A DNA stretch of 32,815 bases, taken from an uncultured Erysipelotrichaceae bacterium. GTDB lineage: Bacteria > Bacillota_I > Bacilli_A > Erysipelotrichales > Erysipelotrichaceae. Shown one piece after another: positions 4,370 to 28,511 of the stretch. The stretch is from contig CALVFL010000006.1 in assembly GCA_944326825.1 (NCBI GenBank), positions 1 through 32,815 of the forward strand, read 5' to 3'. The notes beneath the pieces are model-generated. The model was given only the letters and a program-made list of their open reading frames with translations, was not told where the DNA came from and did not search any database. Every line of letters starts with the position of its first letter. Positions within the stretch are counted from its first letter, which is position 1. The position numbers were made by a program, and so were the translations under genes.

Positions 4370-4654
4370 ATGGAATATGATAAAGTGATGGATTATATCG
4401 TCAGTATCGATAAAAGATTAAGATATGAGTACGATGAAATAAACAAGACGATTTTCAAAGGCAGTGACCGCAACGATCTGGTAACAGTCGATATGACCGG
4501 CAACTTCTGTATTGAAAAGATAACTTTCAATGAAGAGATGAAAGATGTTGAAAAGATGAGTGATGCCGTCAAAGAAGCCTTTAATAATGCCCTTGAAAAC
4601 ATTAAAAAGACCAGAATCGAAACAGTTAAAGAGATATTGAAGGAGATAAGATAA
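4370..4654 (+). CDS. YbaB/EbfC family nucleoid-associated DNA-binding protein
   Basis: A 94-aa protein between dnaX and recR, the standard position of ybaB/ebfC. Family features include a central beta region (LVTVDMTGNFCIEKITFNEE) followed by long helices (MSDAVKEAFNNALENIKKTRIETVKEILKEI). It is about 10 residues shorter than typical members (about 105 aa) and lacks their Gly/Met-rich N-terminus, so part of the call rests on context. Members bind DNA as dimers. The gene begins 4 nt after the dnaX stop, with recR 1 nt downstream, so translation is probably coupled. Confidence 0.8.
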   Translation: MEYDKVMDYIVSIDKRLRYEYDEINKTIFKGSDRNDLVTVDMTGNFCIEKITFNEEMKDVEKMSDAVKEAFNNALENIKKTRIETVKEILKEIR

Positions 4655-13739: not shown

Positions 13740-13748
13740 TGATATAAT
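13740..13748 (+). promoter_or_regulatory. Extended -10 promoter for rsmG-noc-parA-parB
   Basis: TGA followed by a perfect TATAAT (13743-13748) ends exactly 6 nt before the GTG start of rsmG, so transcription should begin at or beside the start codon. No good -35 is seen. Confidence 0.7.
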
Positions 13749-13754
13749 TGTCGT

Positions 13755-14453
13755 GTGAATAAAGAGGAATTTATCAGAAGTGTTGAAGAACTGGGTTTAA
13801 AGCTTTCTTTAAGACAAATAGAGCAGTTTGAAAAGTACAGCGATCTTTTGATCGACTGGAATACCAGAATGAATTTAACAGCTATAGACGACAAAGAGGG
13901 GATCTGGGAAAAGCATTTCTATGATTCTCTTTTATCACTACAAGACTTTAATTATCAGGGAAAACTGGCAGATGTGGGTAGCGGTGCTGGATTTCCCGGT
14001 ATAGTGTTAAAGATCGCTTTGAATGATCTTGAAGTAGTATTGATCGAGCCGATCAAGAAGCGCTGCACCTTTTTAAATGAAGTGATCTATAAATTAGAAC
14101 TAAGCGGTATTGAAGTTTTAAATATCCGCTCTGAAGATTATTTAAAAAAATATCCTGCCGACTTTGATATCGTCACAGCCAGAGCAGTGGCTAATTTGAA
14201 TATTCTCAGCGAACTTTGTATCCCGCTTTTAAAAGTGGGCGGCAGTTTCATCATCCTGCGGGGAGCTAACGGCCTTGAAGAACTCAAGGAAGCCAAGAGC
14301 GCCCTTAAGAAACTGAATACCGAATTAGCCGATGTATCTTCACACACTTTAAAAGACGGTTCTAAAAGGATCATTGCGATCGCACATAAAGTAAAGAAAA
14401 ATGAAAAGCGTTACCCAAGGAATTATGGAGAGATAAAAAAGAAACCATTATGA
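13755..14453 (+). CDS. rsmG: 16S rRNA (guanine527-N7)-methyltransferase
   Basis: Methylates G527 of 16S rRNA using SAM. At 232 aa it is close to the usual 235-240. The Rossmann SAM-binding motif LADVGSGAGFPGIVLK is at 71-86, preceded by the family segment WNTRMNLTAI...KHFYDSLL. The GTG at 13755 gives MNKEEFIRSVEELG, matching the family N-terminus, and no Shine-Dalgarno precedes it: the -10 box ends 6 nt upstream. Its TGA stop overlaps the noc ATG by 4 bp. rsmG-noc-parA-parB is the classical order near Bacillota origins. Confidence 0.96.
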   Translation: MNKEEFIRSVEELGLKLSLRQIEQFEKYSDLLIDWNTRMNLTAIDDKEGIWEKHFYDSLLSLQDFNYQGKLADVGSGAGFPGIVLKIALNDLEVVLIEPIKKRCTFLNEVIYKLELSGIEVLNIRSEDYLKKYPADFDIVTARAVANLNILSELCIPLLKVGGSFIILRGANGLEELKEAKSALKKLNTELADVSSHTLKDGSKRIIAIAHKVKKNEKRYPRNYGEIKKKPL

Positions 14454-16830: not shown

Positions 16831-16852
16831 AACCAGATCACTCCTTTATTTT
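16821..16852. terminator. Bidirectional terminator between parB and the minus-strand HAD gene
   Basis: AAAGGAGTGA (16821-16830) and TCACTCCTTT (16838-16847) form a perfect 10-bp stem with a 7-nt loop, with T-rich sequence to the right and A-rich to the left. The two arms contain the TGA stops of both convergent genes. Confidence 0.85.
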
Positions 16853-17668
16853 AAAATAGTCGCTCAGATAACGGGCTACCCCATCTTCTTCGTTGGTGTA
16901 TTCAGTAATACGTTTACTGACATTTATAAGATCTTCTTTGCAGTTTTTCATAAGTACACCTCTGATCTTATCAGAAGCTAAAGCTGCTTCATCGTTATAG
17001 GAATCGCCAAAGAAGATAACATCGTCATAAGGCAAGTCAAGATGATCGGCCAGTTTCAATAAAGCCGTTTCTTTGTTGATGCCTAAAGGGGTTATCTCGC
17101 CATTGTACGGCATCGAAGAAGTAAAAGTAAAGGGCAATTCATATCTTCTTTTTAAAAGATACTTTCTGTCGTTTGGATCTTTAAAGAGTATATTGGCTCT
17201 ATTGATATATCTTTGATTGTTTATGATGTCGCTTTTAATATCCCCTTCAATGATGATCCGGGAACTTTTGATATATTGACTGGTCGCTTCCGGTATTGGG
17301 TATTCATCGAGATGTTCGATACTGTAACGGTCAGAATACATATAGTTATTGATGGAATAATCGATGTCCACTTCTTTAAATTGAGCCAGGAAATCAATGA
17401 TCTCTAAAAATTCTTCTGGTGTAAAGGCAGCATTCAGAAGATAATTATCTGCTTTTTTATCATAGATGATCGCTCCGGTACTGGTGATAGAATAGCGGAA
17501 AAGTTCATCACTTATAAAATAATCCGGCATACTGTAAAAGGCCCTGCCGGTACAAGGTACTAAAAGATGTCCTCTGGAAGCCAAGTTTAAAAAGATGTGT
17601 TTGGTATAATCAGAAACCGTTTTATCATCTTTTAGTATTGTTCCATCAAGGTCAAAAGCTATCAACAT
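16838..17668 (-). CDS. Cof-type HAD-IIB phosphatase
   Basis: A 276-aa sugar-phosphate or flavin-nucleotide-type phosphatase. It shows the nucleophile motif AFDLDGTILKDD (Asp6, Asp8), motif II in CTGR, a class IIB cap, a motif III lysine in GINKETALLKLADHL, and motif IV FFGDSYNDEAAL. The ATG at 17668 has no Shine-Dalgarno; a perfect minus-strand TATAAT ends 6 nt upstream of it. It stands between parB and rpmH, a place where dnaA or oriC might be expected. The substrate cannot be told from the sequence. Confidence 0.92.
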   Translation of the reverse strand: MLIAFDLDGTILKDDKTVSDYTKHIFLNLASRGHLLVPCTGRAFYSMPDYFISDELFRYSITSTGAIIYDKKADNYLLNAAFTPEEFLEIIDFLAQFKEVDIDYSINNYMYSDRYSIEHLDEYPIPEATSQYIKSSRIIIEGDIKSDIINNQRYINRANILFKDPNDRKYLLKRRYELPFTFTSSMPYNGEITPLGINKETALLKLADHLDLPYDDVIFFGDSYNDEAALASDKIRGVLMKNCKEDLINVSKRITEYTNEEDGVARYLSDYFKIKE

Positions 17669-17674
17669 AATTTA

Positions 17675-17680
17675 ATTATA
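17675..17680 (-). promoter_or_regulatory. -10 promoter element of the minus-strand HAD gene
   Basis: The minus strand reads TATAAT, then TAAATT, then the ATG. The -10 ends exactly 6 nt before the start codon, implying a leaderless transcript. Confidence 0.6.
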
Positions 17681-20651: not shown

Positions 20652-21881
20652 ATGCTGGCCTTTTTTAAGAAAAATAAAGAAACCAATAAAAAAGTAAGGA
20701 CGATCGAACTTATCATCCTGATCGTTTTAGTGCTTGCTTCGCTGTTTGCCTATGCTGGTGCGACACTTAAGATGAGTGGTAATCATGAAACCATAACTTT
20801 CAATAAAGAGATTGAAATGGTGCGTGATCTGCAAAATGAAGACTGCGACGGGGCAGAAGTGAGCACTTGTCTTGTGACTTATACAGCAGATGAAGGATCA
20901 ATGACACTGAGCTATCCTTATGAAGAATATGAAAAGTTAGAAGATACTACTATAACTGCTTATGAATATAAGACGGCGGATGATCAAAGCCTTTTCTTTG
21001 ATCATAAAGATGTCAGCGTTAGTGAACTTAAAGCAGCTTATGGCGAACTGATGGCTGATCAGATGATGTCTGTCTTTAACTTTGCCAACGCTTCGCTAAT
21101 CTTGGCCTTGTCTTTAGCAGTCATGTATTTCTTTGGCAGATTGTTTACAACTTATGAAAAAAGCTGGTTTTTAAGCATCATGGTCTTAGCCACGATCTTT
21201 GCGGTCCTGTTTCCAGAAGAAAGCGCCAATGGCGTCAACGGCATCATTATCATGTGGTTATATCTTTTGGATACCTTTCTTAATATCTTGTGTGAGCTGC
21301 TTATCTCGAAACAGTCAAGATATAATTTTCTGGTATCGGTATTCGTAGAGATCGTAGAAATAGTGATCTCCATAGTTCTGATGTACCGTTTTGCGACTTT
21401 GGCCACGACTTTATTCTTCTGGCTGCCGATCGATATCATCAGCTACATCAACTGGTCTAAACATAAAGATGAAAATGAAGAAGAACTGACGATGGTAAGA
21501 AGGCTCAAAGGCTGGCAAGAAGTCATGGTCATCATCGGCATCATCGTCTGGACGATTGTTATCGGTTATTTTATCAGCGGTTTAGATATTGCCACCGACT
21601 TTTATAATAACGATACTTTATTGACAGCCATCATCTATATCGATGCCTGTGCTTCAGCGGTAGGTATCGCTAATGGTCTATTCATCTTCTTCAGATTCAG
21701 AGAACAGTGGATAGCCTGGTATATCTGCTCGGCTTTAGAAGCGATCATCAATATCTTATCCGGACAATATGTCTTGCTCATCTTAAAGCTGGGTTATTTT
21801 ACCAATACGACCTATGGTTATATCAAATGGACTAAATATATCAAGACCCATAAAGAAGAAAATAAGCTCTCAATCTTCTGA
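20652..21881 (+). CDS. PnuC-like transporter with an N-terminal membrane-anchored extension
   Basis: A 409-aa protein. Residues about 195-400 match PnuC nicotinamide riboside/vitamin transporters in layout and motifs: LDTFLNILCELLISKQSRYNF, FFWLPIDIISYINWSKH, then REQWIAWYICSALEAI and the terminal TYGYIKWTKY. PnuC proteins are usually 210-260 aa. Here about 190 residues precede the core: a TM helix at 19-37, a predicted extracytoplasmic beta-rich domain (about 40-140, with Cys65 and Cys73), and a second TM near 145-165. SD GGGGGA at 20641-20646. The substrate is not settled. It has its own promoter with an inverted repeat. Confidence 0.72.
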   Translation: MLAFFKKNKETNKKVRTIELIILIVLVLASLFAYAGATLKMSGNHETITFNKEIEMVRDLQNEDCDGAEVSTCLVTYTADEGSMTLSYPYEEYEKLEDTTITAYEYKTADDQSLFFDHKDVSVSELKAAYGELMADQMMSVFNFANASLILALSLAVMYFFGRLFTTYEKSWFLSIMVLATIFAVLFPEESANGVNGIIIMWLYLLDTFLNILCELLISKQSRYNFLVSVFVEIVEIVISIVLMYRFATLATTLFFWLPIDIISYINWSKHKDENEEELTMVRRLKGWQEVMVIIGIIVWTIVIGYFISGLDIATDFYNNDTLLTAIIYIDACASAVGIANGLFIFFRFREQWIAWYICSALEAIINILSGQYVLLILKLGYFTNTTYGYIKWTKYIKTHKEENKLSIF

Positions 21882-26624: not shown

Positions 26625-26655
26625 AAGCTCTCTTGTCTAAAGAGGGCTTTTCTTT
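26625..26655 (+). terminator. Terminator of the groESL operon
   Basis: AAGCTCTCTT (26625-26634) pairs with AAGAGGGCTT (26640-26649), with one G-U, followed by TTCTTTT. Confidence 0.85.
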
Positions 26656-26689: not shown

Positions 26690-26698
26690 TGTTATGAT
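26690..26698 (+). promoter_or_regulatory. Extended -10 promoter of ispD
   Basis: TGT followed by TATGAT (26693-26698) ends exactly 6 nt before the ATG at 26705, with no Shine-Dalgarno between, which suggests a leaderless mRNA. Confidence 0.6.
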
Positions 26699-26704
26699 AT
26701 AGGT

Positions 26705-27337
26705 ATGAAATATGATGCGATCGTATTAGCCGGGGGCAAAGGCAAAAGACTCGACCTTGGCTACAACAAAGTTTTCTATAAGATGCCAAATGGCAAAACG
26801 ATCTTGGAGAATGCCCTGAGTCCTTTTTTGGAAGATATAGAATGTCAAAGAGTGATCGTGGCTGTGAGTGATGAAGATCTTAAAAAGATTACCTTTGAAA
26901 AAAAGATGATCTTTGCAAGAAACGGCAAAGAACGCTTCTTTTCAGTATATAACGCATTAAAAGAAGTAAAAGAAGAATATGTGATGATCCATGATGGGGC
27001 CAGACCCTATATCACTTCTTTAGATCTTAACAATCTGAAAGAAACTTTAAAGAGCGAAGATGCCGCCATGCTGGGGATAAAAGCCAAAGATACCATCAAA
27101 GAAGTCAAGGACGGCTATGTGCTTAAGACTCTTGATAGAGATCATATCTATCTGGCCCAGACCCCGCAATGTTTTAAAAGTGCATTGATAAAAGAAGCCT
27201 ATTTAAAAGGTTATGAAGATCAGGGCAACTTTACCGATGATGCTTCGGTATTGGAAAGTTATTTTAAGACTAAGATCAAAATGGTCAATTCTACTACTGC
27301 CAACAACAAAATTACCTTTATTGATGATATACGTTAG
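26705..27337 (+). CDS. ispD: 2-C-methyl-D-erythritol 4-phosphate cytidylyltransferase
   Basis: Third step of the MEP isoprenoid pathway (CTP plus MEP to CDP-ME). The 210-aa protein shows the nucleotide-binding loop LAGGKGKR (8-15) with Lys22, HDGARP, and AQTPQCFK. The start is ATG 26705, which gives MKYDAIVLAGG; an in-frame GTG at 26681 lies upstream of the -10 box. ispF does not follow. A TarI-type pentitol-phosphate cytidylyltransferase is a less likely alternative. comFA begins 31 nt downstream. Confidence 0.88.
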   Translation: MKYDAIVLAGGKGKRLDLGYNKVFYKMPNGKTILENALSPFLEDIECQRVIVAVSDEDLKKITFEKKMIFARNGKERFFSVYNALKEVKEEYVMIHDGARPYITSLDLNNLKETLKSEDAAMLGIKAKDTIKEVKDGYVLKTLDRDHIYLAQTPQCFKSALIKEAYLKGYEDQGNFTDDASVLESYFKTKIKMVNSTTANNKITFIDDIR

Positions 27338-27368
27338 GAAAATTAAAAAAATATGACTATAAATCAGT

Positions 27369-28511
27369 ATGAGATGTCCAAGATGCGGGAATACTGACAA
27401 GTCATATTTTTATTTAGGTTCAAAGGGTTATTACTGCCGAAAGTGCATCAAGTTTAAAAGGATACTTTTAAACGAAGAATTATATCCTAAAGAATATCCG
27501 ATAAAGGAAGAGAGTTTTCATTATGATCTGAAGTATGCTCTTACTCCTAAACAAAAGATCATCAGTGATGAGTGTGCTTTACTTATCGATCAAAGTGATG
27601 TGATCTTGCATTGTGTTTGCGGAAGCGGGAAGACAGAGATCGTTTTAAAGACGATCAGCGAATATTTAAAAAAGAAAAAGAAAGTCTGCTACGCCATATC
27701 CCGCAGGGAAGTGGTGATCGATCTTTACGGACGTTTTAAAGCGATTTTTGATAAAGCTAAAGTGGTAATGGTATGTGAAGGACATACCAGTGACTTATAT
27801 GGTGATCTTATCGTTTGTACTACCCATCAGCTGTACCGCTATCCTAAGACTTTTGATCTTTTGATTCTGGATGAAGTCGATGCCTTTCCATTTAAAGGTG
27901 ATGAGGTCTTAAACAATATCGCTTTAAATGCCGCTAAAGGACATATCATCTATTCAACAGCTACGGTTGATGAAAAGATAATGGGCTTTATATCACAAAG
28001 AGAAAGCAGGACCTTATCTTTATATCAAAGACCGCACTTAAAACCGCTGATCGAACCAAAGATAATCATGACTCCTAAACTTATCGGCTACTGGTGGCTT
28101 TTATATCATCTCAACAACAGTCATGGCCAATACATCATCTTTTGCGAAACCAAAAAACAATGTCTATATACCTATTATCTTTTAAGATTGTTTTTTAAGA
28201 CGACTTATGTATATAGCGATCTAAAAGAAAGAGATGAAAATATCAAAGACTTTAAAGATAAAAAGTATCGTTTGATAGTTGCTACAACAGTTTTGGAAAG
28301 AGGGATAACGATCAAAGATGTGAATGTGATCCTTCTCATCAACAACCACTATGTCTTTGACAAAGCCTCGATCATTCAGATGACTGGAAGAGTGGGCAGA
28401 AACTATTATAATCCATTTGGGAAAGCCTATATCATCACTAATAAGATTTCCAAGGAAATAAAAGCAGCCTGTGCGGAGATAAGTTATGCCAATAAAATGT
28501 CGTTATTGTGA
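27369..28511 (+). CDS. comFA: ComFA-like DNA helicase/translocase
   Basis: A superfamily 2 ATPase that helps import transforming DNA. The 380-aa protein has an N-terminal zinc finger (Cys3, Cys6, Cys23, Cys26), Walker A GSGKT (85-89), Walker B LDEVDAF (166-172), and the helicase C-terminal motifs TTVLERGITIKDVNV and QMTGRVGRN. It is shorter than Bacillus ComFA (about 460 aa), but all motifs are present. The ATG 27369 has no SD; TATAAA at 27358-27363 ends 5 nt upstream. comFC overlaps its end by 26 bp. Confidence 0.93.
   Translation: MRCPRCGNTDKSYFYLGSKGYYCRKCIKFKRILLNEELYPKEYPIKEESFHYDLKYALTPKQKIISDECALLIDQSDVILHCVCGSGKTEIVLKTISEYLKKKKKVCYAISRREVVIDLYGRFKAIFDKAKVVMVCEGHTSDLYGDLIVCTTHQLYRYPKTFDLLILDEVDAFPFKGDEVLNNIALNAAKGHIIYSTATVDEKIMGFISQRESRTLSLYQRPHLKPLIEPKIIMTPKLIGYWWLLYHLNNSHGQYIIFCETKKQCLYTYYLLRLFFKTTYVYSDLKERDENIKDFKDKKYRLIVATTVLERGITIKDVNVILLINNHYVFDKASIIQMTGRVGRNYYNPFGKAYIITNKISKEIKAACAEISYANKMSLL

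What the first reader, a model, noticed from the sequence alone, without database searches (positions are those of the whole stretch)
26690..26710. ispD and comFA share the leaderless promoter geometry
ispD: TGT-TATGAT then 6 nt then ATG, no SD. comFA (27358-27371): TATAAA then 5 nt then ATG, no SD. Together with rsmG and the minus-strand HAD gene (TATAAT, 6 nt, ATG at 17680-17666), this suggests leaderless initiation is a regular mode in this organism, not an accident of one gene.
Basis: partly seen in the sequence, partly recalled or inferred. Interest (0 to 1): 0.6.

Follow-up and report, generated by a model that had tools for sequence, protein, structure and literature searches.

The report
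Leaderless genes in an Erysipelotrichaceae genome
In this uncultured Gram-positive bacterium, roughly one gene in twelve appears to be transcribed from exactly the first base of its own start codon (no 5' leader, no ribosome-binding site), and ispD is a clear case while comFA is not; the phenomenon is known in other bacteria, but I found no report of it for this family.

Summary
In the host genome (Erysipelotrichaceae MAG, 1.38 Mb), exact TATAAT upstream of candidate start ATGs peaks at one spacing: 48 cases at 6 nt, against 1 at 5 nt and 11 at 7 nt. The base before those ATGs is a pyrimidine in 47/48. Leadered promoters in the same genome show a purine exactly where the ATG's A falls. A motif model of 1231 genes leaderless, against about 20 in shuffled sequence; 107 of the 115 have no Shine-Dalgarno (SD). 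In a congener, 43/70 orthologues of these genes keep the geometry, against 23/527 of the others (P=2e-30). ispD itself keeps it in 6 of 8 congeners and follows a groEL terminator. comFA is different: its TATAAA lies 5 nt from ATG, a spacing that is not enriched, and it lacks the conserved last T. Its start lies inside a strong, locus-specific inverted repeat. Leaderless initiation is well known in Actinobacteria and Deinococcus, and was predicted in Lactobacillales and Mycoplasma (Zheng 2011). I found no report for Erysipelotrichaceae: a new lineage for a known mechanism. All evidence is computational; TSS mapping is still needed.

The parts
26625..26649 (+). intrinsic-terminator-like hairpin between groEL and ispD (T-rich tail follows)
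   Evidence: 10-pair stem, loop 5, T-rich tail; it implies that ispD needs its own promoter
26693..26698 (+). -10 element TATGAT of ispD, preceded by TGn (26690-26692)
   Evidence: posterior 1.00, 11.2 bits; 6-nt geometry kept in 6 of 8 congeners
26699..26704 (+). 6-nt discriminator ATAGGT; pyrimidine at -1
   Evidence: -1 is a pyrimidine in 47/48 exact TATAAT-N6-ATG starts
26705..27337 (+). ispD, predicted leaderless; TSS = A of ATG 26705
   Evidence: IspD family (TIGR00453, 1.1e-50, slightly below its cut-off); N-terminus aligns from residue 1 in 15 species
27358..27363 (+). TATAAA 5 nt before the comFA start; weak, unproven -10
   Evidence: 5-nt spacing not enriched genome-wide; TATAnn at 5 nt in 5 of 6 congeners but without the -7 T
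27369..28511 (+). comFA-like helicase gene; leaderless status unresolved
   Evidence: Helicase_C 1.1e-19, DEAD 9.3e-11; six-nt score -9.3 bits
27347..27358 (+). left arm of a 12-nt perfect inverted repeat around the comFA start
27400..27411 (+). right arm of that inverted repeat
   Evidence: read-through RNA folds at -18.5 kcal/mol, z -3.98
13743..13748 (+). -10 element TATAAT of rsmG, 6 nt before GTG 13755
   Evidence: 13.0 bits, posterior 1.00
13755..14453 (+). rsmG (gidB), predicted leaderless with a GTG start
   Evidence: GidB 8.5e-51
17675..17680 (-). -10 element TATAAT of the HAD gene, 6 nt before ATG 17668
   Evidence: 11.5 bits, posterior 1.00
16838..17668 (-). Cof-type HAD-IIB hydrolase gene, predicted leaderless
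   Evidence: TIGR00099 3.9e-38

Best explanation
ispD, rsmG and the HAD gene are transcribed from housekeeping-sigma promoters, often of the extended TGn-TATAAT type. Their -10 box sits exactly 6 nt before the start codon, so RNA polymerase starts on the first base of that codon and the mRNA has no 5' leader. Such mRNAs would be translated without an SD, most likely by an initiator-tRNA-loaded 30S or 70S ribosome that recognises the 5'-terminal AUG. This is a regular second mode, about 8-10% of genes, beside the dominant SD mode. Shown here: geometry, spacing specificity, YR initiator signature, lack of SD, orthologue conservation. Inferred: the TSS itself and the ribosome mechanism.
For: Exact TATAAT before in-frame start ATGs: 48 at spacer 6, against 1, 1, 1, 11, 10 at spacers 3, 4, 5, 7, 8; internal in-frame ATGs give 1.6 at spacer 6. 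Base -1 is a pyrimidine in 47/48; genome-wide Y:R is 55:12 at spacer 6 and about 1:1.7 pooled over spacers 1-5. Leadered promoters show a purine peak at the 7th base after TATAAT, the same distance. EM model: 115 of 1231 genes; shuffles mean 20.5, max 28; internal starts 3; offset by one base 3 and 21. 107/115 have no SD, while 911 of 1116 other genes have one; 61 of 262 genes with a divergent neighbour upstream are in the set. Congener G008: 43 TATAAT at spacer 6, 0 at 5, 11 at 7; orthologue odds ratio 35, P=2e-30. ispD keeps the geometry in 6 of 8 congeners and follows a terminator.
Against: No transcript data. Gene starts were called by a simple hexamer method on a draft MAG (82.6% complete). 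About 20 of the 115 calls are expected by chance. ispD has a one-mismatch -10 (TATGAT) and no good -35. The true fraction is uncertain within about 7-10%.
Confidence: 0.9

Rival explanations
1. Start misassignment: the TATAAT-N6-ATG genes are leadered and really start at a downstream in-frame codon with an SD.
For: Starts in MAGs are uncertain; the YbaB call at 4388 (posterior 0.76) is probably of this type.
Against: Orthologous protein lengths from the 6-nt start agree in the congener; IspD aligns from residue 1 with M1 and Y3 invariant in 15 species; a start further down would not create a peak at exactly one spacing with a pyrimidine at -1.
Confidence: 0.05
2. The motif is a translational or other DNA signal that only resembles a -10 box, as with the non-SD signals of Bacteroidetes, and transcripts are leadered.
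For: Such non-SD AT-rich signals are known in other phyla (PMC5397173, PMC9581028).
Against: The motif is a full TGn-TATAAT promoter logo with a YR initiator at the TSS distance calibrated on leadered promoters of the same genome; it is concentrated at genes with a divergent neighbour upstream and absent from internal starts.
Confidence: 0.03
3. comFA is also leaderless, from a TATAAA box with a 5-nt discriminator, and the inverted repeat locks the start codon only in read-through RNA from ispD.
For: TATAnn 5 nt before the start and T at -1 in most congeners; read-through RNA buries the start in a stem, z -3.98, -2.46 and -4.82 in three species with different stems; so strong an upstream-downstream pairing occurs in 0/99 leaderless and 2/300 other genes.
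Against: Spacing of 5 nt is not enriched genome-wide; the hexamer lacks the -7 T in five of six species; no comparable stem in the folds of G002 and G005; comFA may simply be co-transcribed with ispD 31 nt upstream.
Confidence: 0.3

Closest known systems
Leaderless genes of Lactobacillales and Mycoplasma (Zheng et al. 2011, PMC3160421)
   Same: Low-GC Gram-positives; TAtAAT-type -10 about 12 bp before the start; a TG extension before the box, strongest in Lactococcus; a minority of genes
   Different: That survey names no Erysipelotrichaceae (no 'Erysipel' in its text) and reports an average of 4.2% of genes in the Firmicutes genomes where it detects them; here about 8-10% by my model, in one family and patchy among its genera
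Leaderless transcription of Deinococcus-Thermus (PMC12340547) and Mycobacterium tuberculosis (PMC3898074)
   Same: -10 region adjacent to the ORF, start codon at the 5' end, no SD
   Different: Much larger share of genes there (39% and 19% on average for Deinococcus-Thermus and Actinobacteria in Zheng 2011) and experimental TSS support in those organisms

Membership tests
Bacterial leaderless genes (TA-led, -10 adjacent) | -10 hexamer at the distance that puts the TSS on the start codon, above chance | tested here: met
   ispD, rsmG, HAD gene posterior 1.00; comFA not
Bacterial leaderless genes (TA-led, -10 adjacent) | No Shine-Dalgarno before the start | tested here: met
   107 of 115 have no SD match
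Bacterial leaderless genes (TA-led, -10 adjacent) | Pyrimidine-purine initiator at the start codon | tested here: met
   47/48 pyrimidine at -1; leadered promoters place the purine at the same distance
Bacterial leaderless genes (TA-led, -10 adjacent) | Mapped 5' end of the mRNA at the start codon | not testable with these tools
   no transcript data for this uncultured species
Bacterial leaderless genes (TA-led, -10 adjacent) | Translation of the leaderless mRNA | not testable with these tools
   needs ribosome profiling or reporter assays; anti-SD is intact, so SD initiation also operates
Leaderless genes: comFA as a member | -10 at the genome's leaderless spacing | tested here: not met
   spacer 5, not 6; -9.3 bits; 5-nt spacing not enriched

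The most novel reading that the evidence does not exclude
In this lineage the comFA promoter sits inside the loop of a hairpin that forms only in read-through RNA from ispD. Read-through transcripts would hide the comFA start codon, and only a leaderless transcript begun at the start codon itself would be translated, so that leaderless initiation acts as an insulator.
Probability: 0.12. Interest if true: 0.6.

Novelty: new member of a known kind. Interest (0 to 1): 0.42.

Why it matters
Leaderless initiation has been treated as a minority feature in Firmicutes, concentrated in Lactobacillales and Mycoplasma. Here it is a regular, orthologue-conserved mode in a family that includes gut and oral bacteria with reduced genomes. 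It is strong in several genera of Erysipelotrichaceae and absent in the sister family (Y:R 1.03), so gains and losses can be studied over short evolutionary distances. Practically, gene finders that expect an SD may misplace starts in these MAGs, and leaderless mRNAs respond differently to some antibiotics (noted in PMC9581028).

Tried and rejected
Window-only scan: not significant, so the claim had to be tested genome-wide. Spacers 5, 7 and 8 as further leaderless classes: no clear excess over the surrounding promoter background. General hypothesis that leaderless starts are sequestered in read-through RNA: rejected, no difference from other genes (P=0.76). Classical -35 as a requirement: only weak enrichment (33/115 with 4 or more matches, about 18 in shuffles), while 48/115 carry TGn. 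comFA relatives in viral contigs: none.

Full report
What the sequence shows. ispD has TGT-TATGAT at 26690-26698, six bases, then ATG 26705. The minus-strand gene has TATAAT 17680-17675, six bases, then ATG 17668; it is a Cof-type HAD-IIB hydrolase. rsmG (GidB) has TATAAT 13743-13748, six bases, then GTG 13755. comFA has TATAAA 27358-27363, five bases, then ATG 27369. None has a Shine-Dalgarno. In the window alone the pattern is not above chance.

The organism. The window is contig 6 of a 1.38 Mb, 48-contig draft. Named relatives from the IspD search are Erysipelotrichaceae; the contig of G001, a member of the same genus, matches a MAG titled 'uncultured Erysipelotrichaceae bacterium' (L123). 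The genus is otherwise unnamed here.

Genome-wide test. I rebuilt the genome from stretches, with contig 6 identical to the window, and called 1242 genes with a hexamer model. Exact TATAAT before in-frame candidate ATGs occurs 48 times at spacer 6, and 1, 1, 1 times at spacers 3, 4, 5 and 11, 10, 9 at 7, 8, 9. Internal in-frame ATGs, scaled to the same number, give 1.6 at spacer 6. In the 48 cases the base before ATG is C 25, T 22, A 1, G 0. In TATAAT boxes 14-120 nt upstream of non-leaderless genes, the seventh base after the box is a purine in 72% (79% with TGn) and the sixth is enriched in pyrimidine. This calibrates the start site of ordinary promoters of this genome to the same distance that the ATG's A occupies in the leaderless set.

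Size of the class. An EM motif model fixed at spacer 6 gives 115 of 1231 genes with posterior above 0.5. Shuffled upstream regions give 20.5 on average (maximum 28), internal starts 3, and one-base offsets 3 and 21. So about 95 genes, 7.7%, are in excess of the shuffle background, and 9.6% by the raw estimate. 107 of 115 lack an SD, whereas 911 of 1116 other genes have an SD match at some candidate start. 61 of the 262 genes whose upstream neighbour is divergent belong to the class. The 16S anti-SD is intact, so both modes operate. Genes in the class are ordinary housekeeping ones, among them uvrB, arginine deiminase, a NFACT protein and several RNA-modification enzymes.

Conservation. In 0.94 Mb of congener G008 the same peak appears (43 at spacer 6, 0 at 5, 11 at 7). 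Of 70 leaderless genes with a reciprocal best hit there, 43 are called leaderless, against 23 of 527 others (odds ratio 35, P=2e-30), with matching protein lengths and otherwise diverged upstream sequence. The motif model was trained on G000 only. ispD keeps a spacer-6 box in G000, G001, G003, G005, G007 and G008, and has an SD instead in G002 and G006. A terminator-like hairpin at 26625-26649 separates groEL from ispD, so ispD needs its own promoter, and the -10 at 26693 is the best candidate close to the start.

Spread. Across 295 genomes of the order, spacer 6 exceeds the codon-phase-matched spacer 3 by 3.5-fold in this genus, 4.2-fold in g3, 8.7-fold in g58 and 3.1-fold in g37, but only 1.17-fold in the sister family f2 (counts transcribed by hand, 30 genomes of g3). 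The pyrimidine:purine ratio at -1 is 189:33 for three genomes of this genus and 303:295 for f2; another family of the class, f8, is also high at 347:161. The mode is therefore patchy across this class. I did not build a tree.

comFA. It does not fit. Spacing 5 has no clear excess in either genome, and TATAAA lacks the -7 T that the leaderless boxes keep at 96%. Five of six congeners do keep TATAnn five bases before the start, so a weak promoter there is possible. What is unusual is the 12-nt perfect inverted repeat 27347-27358 / 27400-27411. Read-through RNA from ispD would bury the comFA start (z -3.98), and two relatives form different stems at the same place (z -2.46 and -4.82). This strength of pairing across a start is found in 0 of 99 leaderless and 2 of 300 other genes. 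No comparable stem was predicted in G002 and G005.

Known or new. Leaderless genes with a -10 box about 12 bp before the start were surveyed by Zheng et al. 2011 (PMC3160421). They reported 56 of 209 Firmicutes genomes, average 4.2% of genes, concentrated in Lactobacillales and Mycoplasma, with the TG extension in Lactococcus. The -10-next-to-ORF pattern is described for Deinococcus-Thermus (PMC12340547). Literature searches pairing leaderless with Erysipelotrichia, Bacillota, Erysipelotrichaceae, Bulleidia and related names found no report for this family; the library is open-access only, and the GeneMarkS-2 paper was not held, so a prediction for this family could exist there. The mechanism is known; the lineage, the strength of orthologue conservation and the contrast with the sister family are the additions.

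Noticed in passing
window 27347-27411: 12-nt perfect inverted repeat enclosing the comFA start codon; read-through RNA folds at z -3.98, with different stems at the same place in two congeners (G006, G007).
   Followed up: partly
L009:13025-15439 (-), contig 8 of the host genome: Predicted leaderless gene for an 805-aa protein that joins an EF-G-like GTPase (PF00009) to a C-terminal YacP/NYN domain (PF05991).
   Followed up: no
window 20652-21881: PnuC-type transporter (PF04973 at residues 202-395) with about 200 N-terminal residues without a Pfam match and a gap of about 800 nt upstream with only one small ORF call.
   Followed up: no
window 4370-4654: YbaB/EbfC gene: the model calls ATG 4388 leaderless at posterior 0.76, but the TATGAT lies within the frame that opens at ATG 4370; probably a false call.
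   Followed up: partly
family codes f8 and f16: Other families of the class also show a pyrimidine excess at TATAAT-N6-ATG (for example G459 18:0, G380 11:0, G463 26:5), suggesting further leaderless-using lineages.
   Followed up: no
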